Source of the DNA: Vallitaleaceae bacterium 9-2
GTDB lineage: Bacteria; Bacillota; Clostridia; Lachnospirales; Vallitaleaceae
Direction of reading: 5' to 3'
Assembly (NCBI GenBank): GCA_038396585.1
Contig: CP121691.1
Span: 3,224,001 to 3,288,000, forward strand
Length of the DNA: 64,000 bases
Shown here: positions 12,545 to 23,571 of the stretch, piece by piece
How the letters are laid out: every line of letters starts with the position of its first letter
Numbering within the stretch: position 1 is the first letter of the stretch
Notes under the pieces: model-generated
What the model was told of the DNA's origin: nothing
Seen by the model: the letters and a program-made list of their open reading frames with translations, nothing else
The model's database searches: none
Translations under genes and position numbers: made by a program

Positions 12545-13096
12545 ATGCGAAAAGTACAGTTAGAATCCCCTCGTCTTATTATAAAAACAATTACGCCTTC
12601 TCAAGCTTCAAAAGTCTTGGCATTTTATATGGAAAACAAGGATTTTTTCGAACCCTTTGAGCCTTATCGTCCACCGTACTTTTATACCAAACAACATCAG
12701 CGTCAACTCCTTCGCTGGGATTTACAGGGATTAGCCGAATCTTCTATGGTAAGGTTTTGGCTATATAAAAAAGAAGACCTTGCCCATCCCATCGGAAGCA
12801 TATCCTTGTCCAATATTTTTCGTGGGGTTTTTCAATCGTGTAATATCGGCTACAAAATTGATTGTCAGCATACACGTCAAGGATATATGGAAGAAGCCAT
12901 GATTCAAGTCATTGAGTATGCTTTTTTAACATTGGATCTTCATCGTATTGAAGCCAACGTTATGCCACGTAATACCCCTTCGTTAAGCCTTGTAAAAAAG
13001 CTCGGTTTTCACGAAGAAGGCTTAGCTAAGCAATATTTAAAAATTAATGGTCAGTGGGAAGACCATCTACATATGACACTCTTAAACGAAACTTAA
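12545..13096 (+). CDS. GNAT-family N-acetyltransferase (RimJ/RimL-like)
   Basis: 183 residues, typical length for the RimJ/RimL branch. Starts with the branch-typical ESPRLIIKTI strand, has the acetyl-CoA-binding region (NIGYKIDCQHTRQGYMEEA) and the C-terminal LGFHEEGLAKQYLKINGQWEDH. Members acetylate N-termini of ribosomal proteins, other proteins or small molecules; the substrate is not predictable. Encoded alone; the 3' side holds the first small-RNA copy. Confidence 0.82.
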   Translation: MRKVQLESPRLIIKTITPSQASKVLAFYMENKDFFEPFEPYRPPYFYTKQHQRQLLRWDLQGLAESSMVRFWLYKKEDLAHPIGSISLSNIFRGVFQSCNIGYKIDCQHTRQGYMEEAMIQVIEYAFLTLDLHRIEANVMPRNTPSLSLVKKLGFHEEGLAKQYLKINGQWEDHLHMTLLNET

Positions 13097-13112: not shown

Positions 13113-13166
13113 TTTACAAATTGTTCATAAAGTATACATTTTGTATACACAACTATATTGTATTAT
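13113..13166 (+). promoter_or_regulatory. Putative promoter of small RNA copy 1
   Basis: TGTATTAT at 13159-13166 supplies a -10 (TATTAT at 13161-13166) that ends 5 nt before the first hairpin base. No good -35 is seen. A conserved box (TTTACAAAT, then TTCATA) begins at 13113, exactly 48 bp before the -10, as in copy 2. This could be an activator site. Confidence 0.45.
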
Positions 13167-13171
13167 TTATC

Positions 13172-13261
13172 TGTAAGAATTAGTTACCTCTTACATATTA
13201 AATACTCTCCCCCTCATCCTTTACAATAGCACCAAGCTTCGAGCTTAGGTGCTCTTTTTTT
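13172..13261 (+). ncRNA. Candidate small regulatory RNA, copy 1
   Basis: A 90-nt element with three parts. The 5' hairpin is TGTAAGA (13172-13178) paired with TCTTACA (13189-13195), with a 10-nt loop. An unpaired C-rich stretch CTCTCCCCCTCATCC lies at 13205-13219. The terminator (GCACC/GGTGC and AAGCT/AGCTT pairing, 13229-13252) is followed by a T run at 13253-13261. The copy at 22017-22106 is identical at 86 of 90 positions, and all four differences fall in loops or a bulge. There is no open reading frame of note and no plus-strand gene downstream, so a leader or riboswitch is unlikely. The C-rich segment resembles the Shine-Dalgarno-pairing segments of known Gram-positive small RNAs (RsaE/RoxS-like in principle). 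No known family was recognised. Confidence 0.72.
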
Positions 13262-13265
13262 GTAT

Positions 13266-13333
13266 AAAAAACCAGCCATACAGGCAATCCCTACCGATAT
13301 AAAGCTTCGGTCAGTACTGCTGTATGGCTGGTT
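13266..13333 (-). terminator. Terminator of the chemoreceptor gene
   Basis: A 14-bp perfect inverted repeat (13270-13283 with 13320-13333) encloses a smaller stem ACCGA (13293-13297) with TCGGT (13307-13311). A T run follows on the minus strand (A run at 13266-13271). It lies directly after the chemoreceptor stop codon. Confidence 0.75.
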
Positions 13334-13338
13334 ATTAA

Positions 13339-15033
13339 TTAAATGTTAAAGTATCCTACCTTTTCATCTAGGCGGTTTGCACTGTTTTGATTCTGCGTTG
13401 TTCGAGTCAACACATCATCCGATTTCATAGCAATATCCGTTAGTTTTTCTGCAATGAGTGTCGTGCCTTCTGCCCCTTCTATAGAGGCTCTAGAGATTTC
13501 ATCAATAGCTAAGCGAATCTGTCGAATCGTCTCTACCAACTGTAACGCCACATGATTAATCTCCATCACCACTGTTTGCACTTGATCTGAGTCTTGGTTA
13601 TATTGGTCACTGGTTTTTACAAACACTTGGTAATCCTTTAACACCTGTGTATCGACAAATGCTAATAGTTCCTGTGAATCTTGAACCATGCTTGTTACCG
13701 TATCCGATACATTACTTGTGATTGCATTAATTCTAGATACCGCTTTGTTGGAATCTTCTGCTAACTTGCGAATCTCATCTGCCACCACTGCAAATCCTTT
13801 TCCTGCCTCACCTGCACGTGCAGCTTCTATCGCAGCATTTAGTGCCAGTAGGTTGGTTTGGGATGTAATCGCCATGATTGTCTGAGATAATTCGCGTATT
13901 TCTTCAATTGCATCGGCTTTTTGAATTGAATCTCGAAGTTGTTGATTTGTCTTTTCATAAATGCCGGTTGCACTATTATATGAATTGAGGGTTTCTTCTT
14001 TCAGTAAATCTGCCCGCTTTTTAATTTCCTTTGCCAGCGTTTCACCTGAATAGGTCTTATCCTTCATCTGCTCAATGCGTTCTTCGATTTCAGTCGCTGA
14101 TGCATGCATCTGTTGTGTCGATGCCGATGTCTCATCCATCCCTGCGGATAGCTCTTCTGTTGTTGCAGAGATATCTTGAATACTTGCATGGACAATTTCC
14201 ATATCTTCAAACGCTTCTGTCGCAGAGCCCTTTAACTTCTGAGACTCTTGCTTAATCTCATCTAAGACACCTGTAATCTGAGTTTTCATAATATCTGCTG
14301 AGCGTGCAATCTGTCCGATCTCATCTTTTCTCATGGTCAATTTTGGGGGAAACTCAATATCAAATCGCCCTTGCTCCATAGATTGCATGCGTTCTTGAAC
14401 CATATACAATTTTTTGGCGATAAGGCTTCCAAAAAGATACATAAGCACACTACTGATTATAAGCAATACAAACGCTGCTATTCCAATTATTAGCATAACC
14501 TGATCAATCGCCTTAGAAACTTGCTCTGTATAAACTCCCACAAACCACATGCCTATTATTTCCCCAGCATTGTCTTTAATGGGAACATATACCGTGTGCG
14601 AGGATCTGCCCAGAATATCTGCCATGCCAGAGTATAGTTCTCCTTGCTCTAGAACTTTTTGGACGACCGCTTGGGAAGCCTGGGTTCCTACTTGGCGCTG
14701 CCCATTAGCATCTGAGACATTGGTAGTTATACGTGTATCGCCTTGGAAAATTGTGACTAATATATCCGCTCCATTGGTAATTTCATCAATAATTTCTGTA
14801 TTGTCATTGATGACGACGTCCCCTTTATAAAGCTTATCGTCTATAATGCTCCAATCGCCCGGATAAATTGTGTCGATAAGATGCAATCCTACACCCGAAT
14901 AATTTTCCAGTTCTTGTGTTTTTTCTCGCATAATTAAGGCATTCATTTCATTATGCATAAAAAGAACAATTGCTGTTGTCAGTGCGACAATAATCCCGGT
15001 GGTAATTAAACTGATTTTCCATTTGATTTTCAT
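13339..15033 (-). CDS. Methyl-accepting chemotaxis protein with periplasmic-type Cache sensor
   Basis: 564 residues from the ATG at 15033; AAAGGAAGTG precedes it, while the longer frame from 15105 lacks a comparable site. Transmembrane helix at about 7-28, extracellular sensor with a single-Cache-like pattern (30-180), second helix about 183-205, HAMP domain, then the cytoplasmic signalling domain with the conserved hairpin tip ([18 protein letters not shown]) and C-terminal helices. It should sense a ligand and modulate CheA. Its place directly downstream of an ABC sugar importer suggests a carbohydrate attractant, perhaps delivered by the importer's binding protein. This is inference. Confidence 0.9.
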
Positions 15034-15117
15034 TTTGGCACTTCCTTTCATAATTATGAAATAAAATACCCTCTCTGGTTTTCCCATCGCAATACCTGCT
15101 GCCATTTCTCACAAGTT

Positions 15118-21956: not shown

Positions 21957-22010
21957 TTTACAAATCATTCATACTTCTTGCATACTATAGACATATTTCT
22001 CCTGTATTAT
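21957..22010 (+). promoter_or_regulatory. Putative promoter of small RNA copy 2
   Basis: TGTATTAT at 22003-22010, 6 nt before the 5' hairpin, and the conserved TTTACAAAT/TTCATA box starting at 21957, with the same 48-bp spacing to the -10 as in copy 1. Between the box and the -10 the two copies differ, which argues that the shared parts are functional. Confidence 0.5.
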
Positions 22011-22016
22011 AATAAC

Positions 22017-22106
22017 TGTAAGAAATAGTTACCTCTTACATATTAAATACTCTCCCCCTCATCCTTTACAATAGCACCAAGCTTTAAGCTTCGGTGCTCT
22101 TTTTTT
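22017..22106 (+). ncRNA. Candidate small regulatory RNA, copy 2
   Basis: Same 90-nt layout as copy 1. Hairpin TGTAAGA (22017-22023) with TCTTACA (22034-22040), C-rich unpaired segment TCTCCCCCTCATCC (22051-22064), terminator 22074-22097 and T run to 22106. The upstream gene (yesM-like) is divergent and the downstream gene (GH4 enzyme) is convergent. This copy therefore must have its own promoter and cannot be a leader or a 3' untranslated region. Its 3' end touches the stop codon of the GH4 gene. Confidence 0.75.
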
Positions 22107-23571
22107 ATACTGTTATGTCACGTGTTCCTTTTTCTTTGGCCACTTCTTCCGGCGTTTTTACCTTGAATCGGACAGCTCCTTGATAGTCAGAAATTCTTTT
22201 TTTATACGTTCCGTCTGCAAAACGTTGTTCACTTTGTTGAATAGCTTTTGTATACTGTGGCAACCACTGCTTTTGTGCTACTAGCATCTCATCAACCATC
22301 TCCCAAACTTCCGGTGGATTACATACGGCTCCTGTCAGCGGATCCATAAGTGCTGCTTGCTTAAGCAATTGTACGTCTCCATGTACGGCTGCTTCAACAG
22401 ATAATTTTTGCACCCAAATCGATTGTGAACATACCGCTGCACATCCTAGGGGCAATTGTCCGACTTTTGGCACCATAATACCATTACCATCCACATAACA
22501 TGGTACTTCTACAACGGATTCGTCCGCTAAATTTGTAATACACCCTTCATTCATCACATTAAAATGTCCTCGATACCTTCTTCCGGTTTCAAGCGCTTCA
22601 ATAATATAAGAACCATGTTCTCGTCCACGTTCAGATCCATCCATTTTTTTAGCCGGTTCTTTAATGATTTTAGGATAGTCTGTTATGAACCAGTCGCGTT
22701 CCTCACGGGTAATGCGTAGATATCCTCCGGTCTCGCCGTTAATCCATGCATCCGTATTAATCCACTCTTTAATCTCTTGCGGGCGCTTCCTATACCAAGC
22801 CACATATTCTGACAAGTGTCCATTGGATTCTGTGGAATAATGATTAAAACGCTTGAGCATGTCGATTCTGACTTTTTCTTCTCTGCTAAACCGTTCATGT
22901 TTTTGAAAAGCTTCTAATAGATGTTCTTTTAATTCAACACCTTGATGCTTGATTGAAATGTACCAGGTCTGATGGTTAATTCCTGCACAGATAATATCCA
23001 AATCGTTTCTGTCATATCCAAGCACTTGCGCAATTTGATCTTCACCATGAATCTCTCCATGACAAAGACCAATCGTAGGTACCTTGCCATAGATATTCGC
23101 AGCCCATGTAATCATTGCATTTGGATTGGAATAATTGAGCATCATGGCATCTTTATGAGCCACTTCACGTATATCTTTACAAAAGTCAAGAATCTCAGCA
23201 ATGCCTCTTTGACCATACATAATACCACCAATACATAGTGTATCCCCAACACACTGATCCACTCCATATTTTAGCGGTATGTCAATATCCATTTCAAAAG
23301 CTTCAAGCCCACCTACCCGAACACAATTAATAATGTACTTTGCATCTTTAAACGCTTCTCGTCGATTTGTCGTCGCCTGAATCTGAATATCAATTCCATT
23401 AGCATCTAAGTCTCTCTGACACAGGAATCTAACTTTTTCCAGATTATCCGGGTGAATGTCGGTAAAAGCTATCTCAATATTGTGAAACTCAGGGACAGAC
23501 ATAATGTCTGTAAATAATGTTCGTGTAAAAACCAAACTTCCGGCACCGATAAATGCAATCTTAAACTTCAT
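22105..23571 (-). CDS. melA: Glycoside hydrolase family 4, alpha-galactosidase/alpha-glucosidase type
   Basis: 488 residues. N-terminal NAD-binding motif FIGAGSLVFTR, NPNAM at 149-153, and the metal ligands C170 in GLCHGEIHG and H200 in GINHQTW. Family 4 enzymes use NAD+ and Mn2+ to oxidise C3 of the sugar and cleave by elimination. Sequence pattern and the absence of a phosphotransferase system nearby favour a non-phosphorylated alpha-galactoside or alpha-glucoside. The symbol marks the closest named family member; specificity is unproven. Transcribed towards the yesMN/importer block and divergent from an AraC regulator that probably controls it. Confidence 0.85.
   Translation of the reverse strand: MKFKIAFIGAGSLVFTRTLFTDIMSVPEFHNIEIAFTDIHPDNLEKVRFLCQRDLDANGIDIQIQATTNRREAFKDAKYIINCVRVGGLEAFEMDIDIPLKYGVDQCVGDTLCIGGIMYGQRGIAEILDFCKDIREVAHKDAMMLNYSNPNAMITWAANIYGKVPTIGLCHGEIHGEDQIAQVLGYDRNDLDIICAGINHQTWYISIKHQGVELKEHLLEAFQKHERFSREEKVRIDMLKRFNHYSTESNGHLSEYVAWYRKRPQEIKEWINTDAWINGETGGYLRITREERDWFITDYPKIIKEPAKKMDGSERGREHGSYIIEALETGRRYRGHFNVMNEGCITNLADESVVEVPCYVDGNGIMVPKVGQLPLGCAAVCSQSIWVQKLSVEAAVHGDVQLLKQAALMDPLTGAVCNPPEVWEMVDEMLVAQKQWLPQYTKAIQQSEQRFADGTYKKRISDYQGAVRFKVKTPEEVAKEKGTRDITV

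What the first reader, a model, noticed from the sequence alone, without database searches (positions are those of the whole stretch)
13172..13261. Undescribed twin small RNA: copy 1 and its conserved architecture
A 90-nt element at 13172-13261 recurs at 22017-22106 with the same length and 86 of 90 identical bases. Both have a 7-bp 5' hairpin, a fixed unpaired C-rich middle (CTCTCCCCCTCATCC) and a terminator with a T run. All four differences are in loops or a bulge, which is the pattern expected if structure and the middle segment are selected. The middle is complementary to Shine-Dalgarno-like GGAUGAGGGGGAG sequences. Two genes in this window (starts at 1289 and 38831) have GGGGG ribosome binding sites that could pair. 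I do not recognise it as a known RNA family.
Basis: partly seen in the sequence, partly recalled or inferred. Interest (0 to 1): 0.85.

Follow-up and report, generated by a model that had tools for sequence, protein, structure and literature searches.

The report
Phosphate-box-controlled C-rich small RNA family
Two near-identical 90-nt stretches in this anaerobic bacterium's DNA are copies of a previously unlisted, conserved small-RNA gene family whose promoters carry the same switch as the cell's phosphate-uptake genes, so it is probably a phosphate-starvation regulator that sticks to G-rich ribosome-binding sites.

Summary
In detail: 13172-13261 and 22017-22106 are 90 nt each, 86/90 identical, with 5' hairpin, unpaired C-rich middle and terminator. 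They belong to a conserved RNA family: a covariance model finds it in 19 of 22 genomes of the host's family (Vallitaleaceae by named neighbours), 1-4 copies each, and in a second family of the order, with compensatory changes mainly in the terminator. No Rfam match.

24 of 33 copies carry four TTNACA-like units at 11-bp period, ending 4 nt before TANNNT in 23 of 24, at -59/-60 from the RNA start. pstS promoters of the same genomes have the same layout (box in 17 of 20; 4-nt gap in 16 of 17), and the best phoB-type regulators lie beside pst or phoU. Genus g8 lacks pstS, and its RNAs lack a clear box. Best reading: a Pho-controlled, multi-copy, trans-acting C-rich sRNA masking Shine-Dalgarno sequences; it works like FsrA/RoxS/LhrC but is a separate family.

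The parts
13113..13156 (+). Pho-type box of copy 1: TTTACAAATTG|TTCATAAAGTA|TACATTTTGTA|TACACAACTAT, four units at 11-bp period
   Evidence: score 21.1; random 80-nt windows 99th percentile 15.3; best hit of promoter profile R2 in the genome, by construction; layout shared with pstS promoters
13161..13166 (+). inferred -10 element TATTAT of copy 1, 4 nt after the box
   Evidence: sequence; TANNNT at this offset in 23 of 24 boxed copies
13172..13261 (+). small RNA, copy 1 (inferred transcript)
   Evidence: at the ancestral position next to the acetyltransferase gene
13172..13195 (+). 5' hairpin, 7 bp (TGTAAGA/TCTTACA), 10-nt loop
   Evidence: MFE; 96% of cells paired over 30 distinct homologues
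13205..13219 (+). unpaired C-rich segment CTCTCCCCCTCATCC
   Evidence: conserved also in 12 copies not found through the 17-mer seed; mean unpaired probability 0.93
13228..13261 (+). intrinsic terminator stem-loop and T run
   Evidence: MFE; all 5 modelled pairs show two-sided changes in relatives
12545..13096 (+). RimJ-like GNAT acetyltransferase, conserved upstream neighbour of the Pho-type copy
   Evidence: NCBIfam best match NF008072 below its cut-off; homologue beside the RNA in 10 genomes including a second family
13339..15105 (-). methyl-accepting chemotaxis protein, convergent downstream neighbour (not conserved next to the RNA)
   Evidence: Pfam; singleton in neighbour clustering
21957..22000 (+). 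Pho-type box of copy 2: TTTACAAATCA|TTCATACTTCT|TGCATACTATA|GACATATTTCT
   Evidence: score 20.8; R2 E = 6.5e-8, by construction
22005..22010 (+). inferred -10 element TATTAT of copy 2
   Evidence: sequence
22017..22106 (+). small RNA, copy 2 (paralogue)
22050..22064 (+). C-rich segment of copy 2
   Evidence: identical to copy 1
22073..22106 (+). terminator of copy 2; its T run touches the end of the convergent GH4 gene (22105-23571, -)

Best explanation
Each copy is an independent small-RNA gene: its own sigma-A-type -10, a start at about 13172/22017 and its own terminator, with no conserved reading frame. In most copies, both window copies included, the -35 is replaced by a four-unit, 11-bp-period PHO box bound by the PhoB/PhoP response regulator of the pst system, so transcription should rise in phosphate starvation. 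The exposed CUCUCCCCCUCAUCC then pairs with G-rich Shine-Dalgarno regions of several mRNAs and blocks translation. Duplicate copies, some with constitutive-type promoters, raise the dose or decouple it from phosphate. Shown here: structure, conservation, promoter layout shared with pstS. Inferred: PhoB binding, induction. Weakly supported: translational repression and its targets.
For: RNA family with conserved fold in 19/22 genomes of the family and 2 of another. Of 33 copies, 24 have the box at -59/-60 from the RNA start; 11-bp period scores best for both RNA and pstS promoters; TANNNT lies exactly 4 nt after the box in 23/24 RNA and 16/17 pstS promoters; 0 of 38 other upstream regions of the window reach the box score that 16/20 pstS regions reach. 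The best PhoB-type regulator is within about 5 kb of pstS in many genomes and next to phoU in the own genome. Genus g8 has no pstS (0/3) and its two RNA copies lack the in-register box. PHO boxes are known as 11-nt direct repeats, also in B. subtilis (PMC4415409). C-rich segments pair with Shine-Dalgarno sequences in RoxS/RsaE (PMC4409812) and LhrC (PMC4132741). One gene start of the own genome (G000:C1 2682971 region) has a perfect 12-nt complement over its ribosome-binding site (-26.7 kcal/mol).
Against: No transcript, induction or target data. Repeat-type boxes of other OmpR-family regulators (WalR) look alike, so PhoB is inferred from sharing with pst. Of the two own-genome pstS promoters one has the full layout (L083); the other (L082) has only two clear units. 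The sharpest promoter profile finds no pst gene at high significance. No target is conserved between genera: TGAGGGGG-start hits differ in every genome. The exact core in the first set is biased because a 17-mer of it was the search seed.
Confidence: 0.7

Rival explanations
1. Conserved small RNA whose repeat box is read by another OmpR-family regulator, such as a WalR-like cell-wall regulator, not by the phosphate system.
For: WalR boxes are also 11-bp repeats of a similar hexamer (own knowledge). The genomes hold 9 to more than 80 PhoB-like regulators. Some weak promoter-profile hits precede unrelated genes.
Against: Same box, same 4-nt gap to -10 and same strand at pstS in 16 genomes' loci; box absent where pstS is absent.
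Confidence: 0.15
2. The RNA acts by binding a protein (a sponge for a CU/C-rich RNA-binding protein such as a cold-shock or KH-domain protein) rather than by pairing with mRNAs.
For: The core is almost invariant over genera while no target is conserved; several copies per genome, as for protein-sequestering RNAs; no convincing target.
Against: A single C-rich segment per RNA, whereas sponges such as CsrB carry many sites; C-rich single strands in Bacillota sRNAs are proven mRNA-pairing sites (PMC4409812, PMC4132741).
Confidence: 0.15
3. A cis-acting leader or attenuator, or a mere transcription terminator of the upstream gene.
For: Terminator present; the upstream acetyltransferase gene is co-oriented in 8 family genomes.
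Against: Own promoter directly upstream; downstream gene is convergent at most Pho-type loci; orientation is inverted between the same two neighbours in the other family; paralogues lie in unrelated places.
Confidence: 0.05
4. Mobile repeat (MITE or similar).
For: Several near-identical copies per genome.
Against: Only two in the genome; no plasmid or phage match; promoters and neighbours conserved at the orthologous locus; no terminal inverted repeats or target duplications seen.
Confidence: 0.02

Closest known systems
FsrA and RoxS/RsaE (Bacillus, Staphylococcus), with CsfG
   Same: Short, terminator-ended sRNAs of Bacillota with unpaired C-rich segments; RoxS is driven by the two-component system ResDE; proven Shine-Dalgarno pairing (PMC4409812; PMC8216469).
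   Different: Several short C-rich regions instead of one; other regulators (Fur, ResD, sigma F/G); no sequence or covariance match at Rfam gathering scores.
LhrC1-5 (Listeria)
   Same: Multi-copy, near-identical, about 110 nt, each copy with its own promoter under a two-component system (LisRK), CU-rich UCCC pairing motif (PMC4132741).
   Different: Three UCCC motifs, envelope stress, no sequence similarity; here some copies lack the box and would not share the control.
Pho regulon promoters (pstS of the same genomes)
   Same: Four TTNACA-like units at 11 bp, 4 nt to TANNNT.
   Different: Drives a non-coding RNA; unit 3/4 sequence differs (TACATA/TACACA against NTTATA/TTAACA).
C-rich Lachnospiraceae and f18 RNAs found here (L147, L148, L149, L154, L155, L201, L202)
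   Same: Pho-like repeats upstream, ATACTC(T/C)CCCCCTC or ATACCCTCCCC segment, terminator.
   Different: Other 5' hairpin, other neighbours; weak model scores (E 6e-4 to 0.05), so homology is uncertain.

Membership tests
Any described RNA family (Rfam 15) | score at or above the family's gathering threshold | tested here: not met
   0 matches in the whole window; only sub-threshold chance hits on other strands or terminators
Trans-acting C-rich sRNAs (FsrA/RoxS/LhrC type, a functional class) | independent short transcript with own promoter and terminator | tested here: inconclusive
   promoter and terminator present by sequence; no transcript data
Trans-acting C-rich sRNAs (FsrA/RoxS/LhrC type, a functional class) | accessible C-rich segment | tested here: met
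   mean unpaired probability 0.93 in 33 homologues
Trans-acting C-rich sRNAs (FsrA/RoxS/LhrC type, a functional class) | pairing with Shine-Dalgarno regions of target mRNAs | tested here: inconclusive
   one perfect 12-nt site at a gene start in the own genome, none conserved
RoxS/RsaE, FsrA, LhrC (as sequence families) | sequence/structure homology | tested here: not met
   no Rfam gathering hit; different number of C-rich regions (papers)
Pho regulon | PHO box of 11-nt direct repeats upstream of -10 | tested here: met
   definition from PMC4415409
Pho regulon | same box in front of pst genes of the same genomes | tested here: met
   17 of 20 pstS regions score 18 or more, 16 of those 17 with the same 4-nt gap
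Pho regulon | PhoB/PhoP and Pst system present | tested here: met
   pstS in 19/22 genomes, PhoB-type regulator within 5 kb of pstS in many; own phoU-phoB at G000:C1 2358576-2359931
Pho regulon | phosphate- and PhoB-dependent expression | not testable with these tools
   needs cells
Mobile repeat | many copies, terminal repeats, spread on plasmids or phages | tested here: not met

The most novel reading that the evidence does not exclude
The first phosphate-starvation-controlled C-rich base-pairing sRNA family of Clostridia: a phosphate-sparing counterpart of the iron-sparing RNAs FsrA and RyhB, multiplied in some genomes and re-wired to constitutive promoters in others, with a common Pho-box plus C-rich design reaching into Lachnospiraceae.
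Probability: 0.45. Interest if true: 0.7.

Novelty: new member of a known kind. Interest (0 to 1): 0.55.

Why it matters
Nutrient-sparing sRNAs are well known for iron, but a conserved sRNA tied to the phosphate regulon was not found for Bacillota in the papers searched here (a limited open-access library). The family gives a ready test: same promoter switch as pstS, short RNA, clear pairing segment, natural promoter-swapped paralogues and natural box-less genomes without Pst.

Tried and rejected
Rfam scan for a known family: none. My first guess, a sporulation-type (CsfG-like, sigma G) promoter, was dropped once the 11-bp repeats and the pstS comparison were seen. Mobile element: rejected. 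Cis-leader: rejected by neighbours and inverted orientation. Target search with TGAGGGGG N4-12 ATG in five genomes: apart from the RNA genes' own complement, few real gene starts, none shared; an apparent shared site upstream of a thiM-like gene lies in coding sequence and is explained by protein conservation. Promoter profile R2 did not recover pst genes at strong E-values, because unit sequences differ; a scored 11-bp unit search did. Wider spread by model in class: only chance-level hits outside the order. L023 (Anaerotalea) has a different hairpin sequence with the exact core; kept in the alignment but it may be a separate variant.

Full report
Observation. Both fold into a 7-bp 5' hairpin, an open C-rich middle and a terminator with T run; the energies beat dinucleotide shuffles by 4.4-4.6 sd. 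The genome (G000, 3.81 Mb) has only these two copies.

Family. An exact 17-mer from the C-rich core, scanned through 84,980 genomes, hit 41 stretches; about half are clear homologues with hairpin, core and terminator, all from Vallitaleaceae-type Clostridia (Petrocella, Anaerotalea, several MAGs), often several per genome; the rest are chance hits. A covariance model from 13 of them found the RNA in 19 of 22 genomes of the host's family, 1-4 copies each, and weaker but clear members in two genomes of another family of the order (f22; E 5e-8 and 1e-7 with the wider model R3). In 33 aligned copies 97.5% of pair cells are paired, 8 of 12 pairs show two-sided changes, and no shuffle or slid structure comes near. 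The covariation is mostly in the terminator stem; the 5' stem (TGTAAGA/TCTTACA) is nearly invariant, so its support is that it stays paired while its loop varies from 4 to 10 nt. The alignment was fitted to the model, and the core of the first set was selected by the seed; in 12 copies not found through the seed the CTC..CCCCCTCA core is still invariant or nearly so.

Locus. The Pho-type copy lies between a RimJ-like acetyltransferase gene and a TIGR03915 gene, which converge on it, in several genera and again in f22, where the RNA is inverted between the same two genes. Copy 1 of the window is at this ancestral place (its other neighbour is now a chemotaxis receptor gene); copy 2 is a paralogue between a histidine kinase gene and a GH4 gene. 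Neither flank explains a cis role.

Promoter. Upstream of most copies there is no -35 but four units TT[ACT]A[CT]A at 11-bp period. With a simple unit score, 24 of 33 copies score 17 or more at a fixed -59/-60 from the RNA start (one of 24, L064, is a weak out-of-register match at -63; random 80-nt windows: 99th percentile 15.3). Period 11 is best among 8-14 for both the RNA and the pstS promoters. The box ends exactly 4 nt before TANNNT in 23/24 RNA and 16/17 pstS promoters; none of 38 other upstream regions of the window scores 19, against 16 of 20 pstS regions. In many of these genomes the best PhoB-type regulator lies within about 5 kb of pstS (e.g. G013, G015, G006, G003, G004); in the own genome it is next to phoU. 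Of the own genome's two pstS genes, one has the full layout, the other only two clear units. Genus g8 lacks pstS (0 of 3), and its two RNA copies have ordinary promoters without an in-register box. The remaining box-less copies have TTGACA-type promoters and coexist with boxed ones in the same genome. The definition of the PHO box as 11-nt direct repeats, also in B. subtilis, is from PMC4415409.

Mechanism. Shown: structure, conservation, shared promoter layout. Inferred: PhoB binding and phosphate-starvation induction. Inferred by analogy with RoxS, FsrA and LhrC (PMC4409812, PMC8216469, PMC4132741): masking of G-rich Shine-Dalgarno regions. Target evidence is thin. In the own genome one gene start, an AAA-ATPase regulator-like protein, has GATGAGGGGGAG as its ribosome-binding site, a perfect 12-nt complement (-26.7 kcal/mol). 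Other genomes give other genes, and none recurs. A protein sponge is therefore a live rival.

Wider design. Weak model hits in Lachnospiraceae-size family f6 and in f18 turned out, on reading, to carry Pho-like repeats, a C-rich ATACTCYCCCCCTC or ATACCCTCCCC segment and a terminator, but another hairpin and other neighbours. A pattern from them hit 4 of 397 f6 genomes in four genera. Whether they are homologues or parallel inventions is open.

Verdict. A real, undescribed sRNA family; new member of a known kind (C-rich regulatory sRNAs), with a new control (Pho box).

Noticed in passing
L097 (G006:C1:1794722, -) and L094 (G015:C1:486830, +): Upstream of trmB in two genera: two to three Pho-like units, a -10 and then a C-rich ACTAYCCCCCCTTTTATT segment; possibly another Pho-type C-rich RNA or leader.
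   Followed up: partly
L023 / G001:C11:128676 (Anaerotalea): RNA with the exact C-rich core but a different hairpin sequence (TGTTATC/GGTAACA) and a TTGACA-TATAAT promoter; a fourth paralogue in that genome.
   Followed up: partly
L147, L155 (f18) and L148, L149, L154, L201, L202 (f6): Pho-like repeats in front of C-rich, terminator-ended RNAs with other hairpins; sporadic in Lachnospiraceae-size family.
   Followed up: partly
window 13264-13339: 20-bp inverted repeat (90% complementary) just after copy 1, probably the terminator of the convergent chemotaxis receptor gene.
   Followed up: no
window 22098-22106: Terminator T run of copy 2 touches the stop end of the convergent GH4 gene (22105-23571, -), so the stem may serve both directions.
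   Followed up: no
L101 (G006:C1:1815718, -): Pho-like box with a good -10 in front of a CBS-domain protein gene and a lipoprotein gene in Petrocella-type genome.
   Followed up: no
L184 (G006) and L185 (G010): CAAGGTGAGGGGGTTG before an internal ATG near a thiM-like gene in two genera; lies in a conserved coding motif (GQGEGVV).
   Followed up: yes
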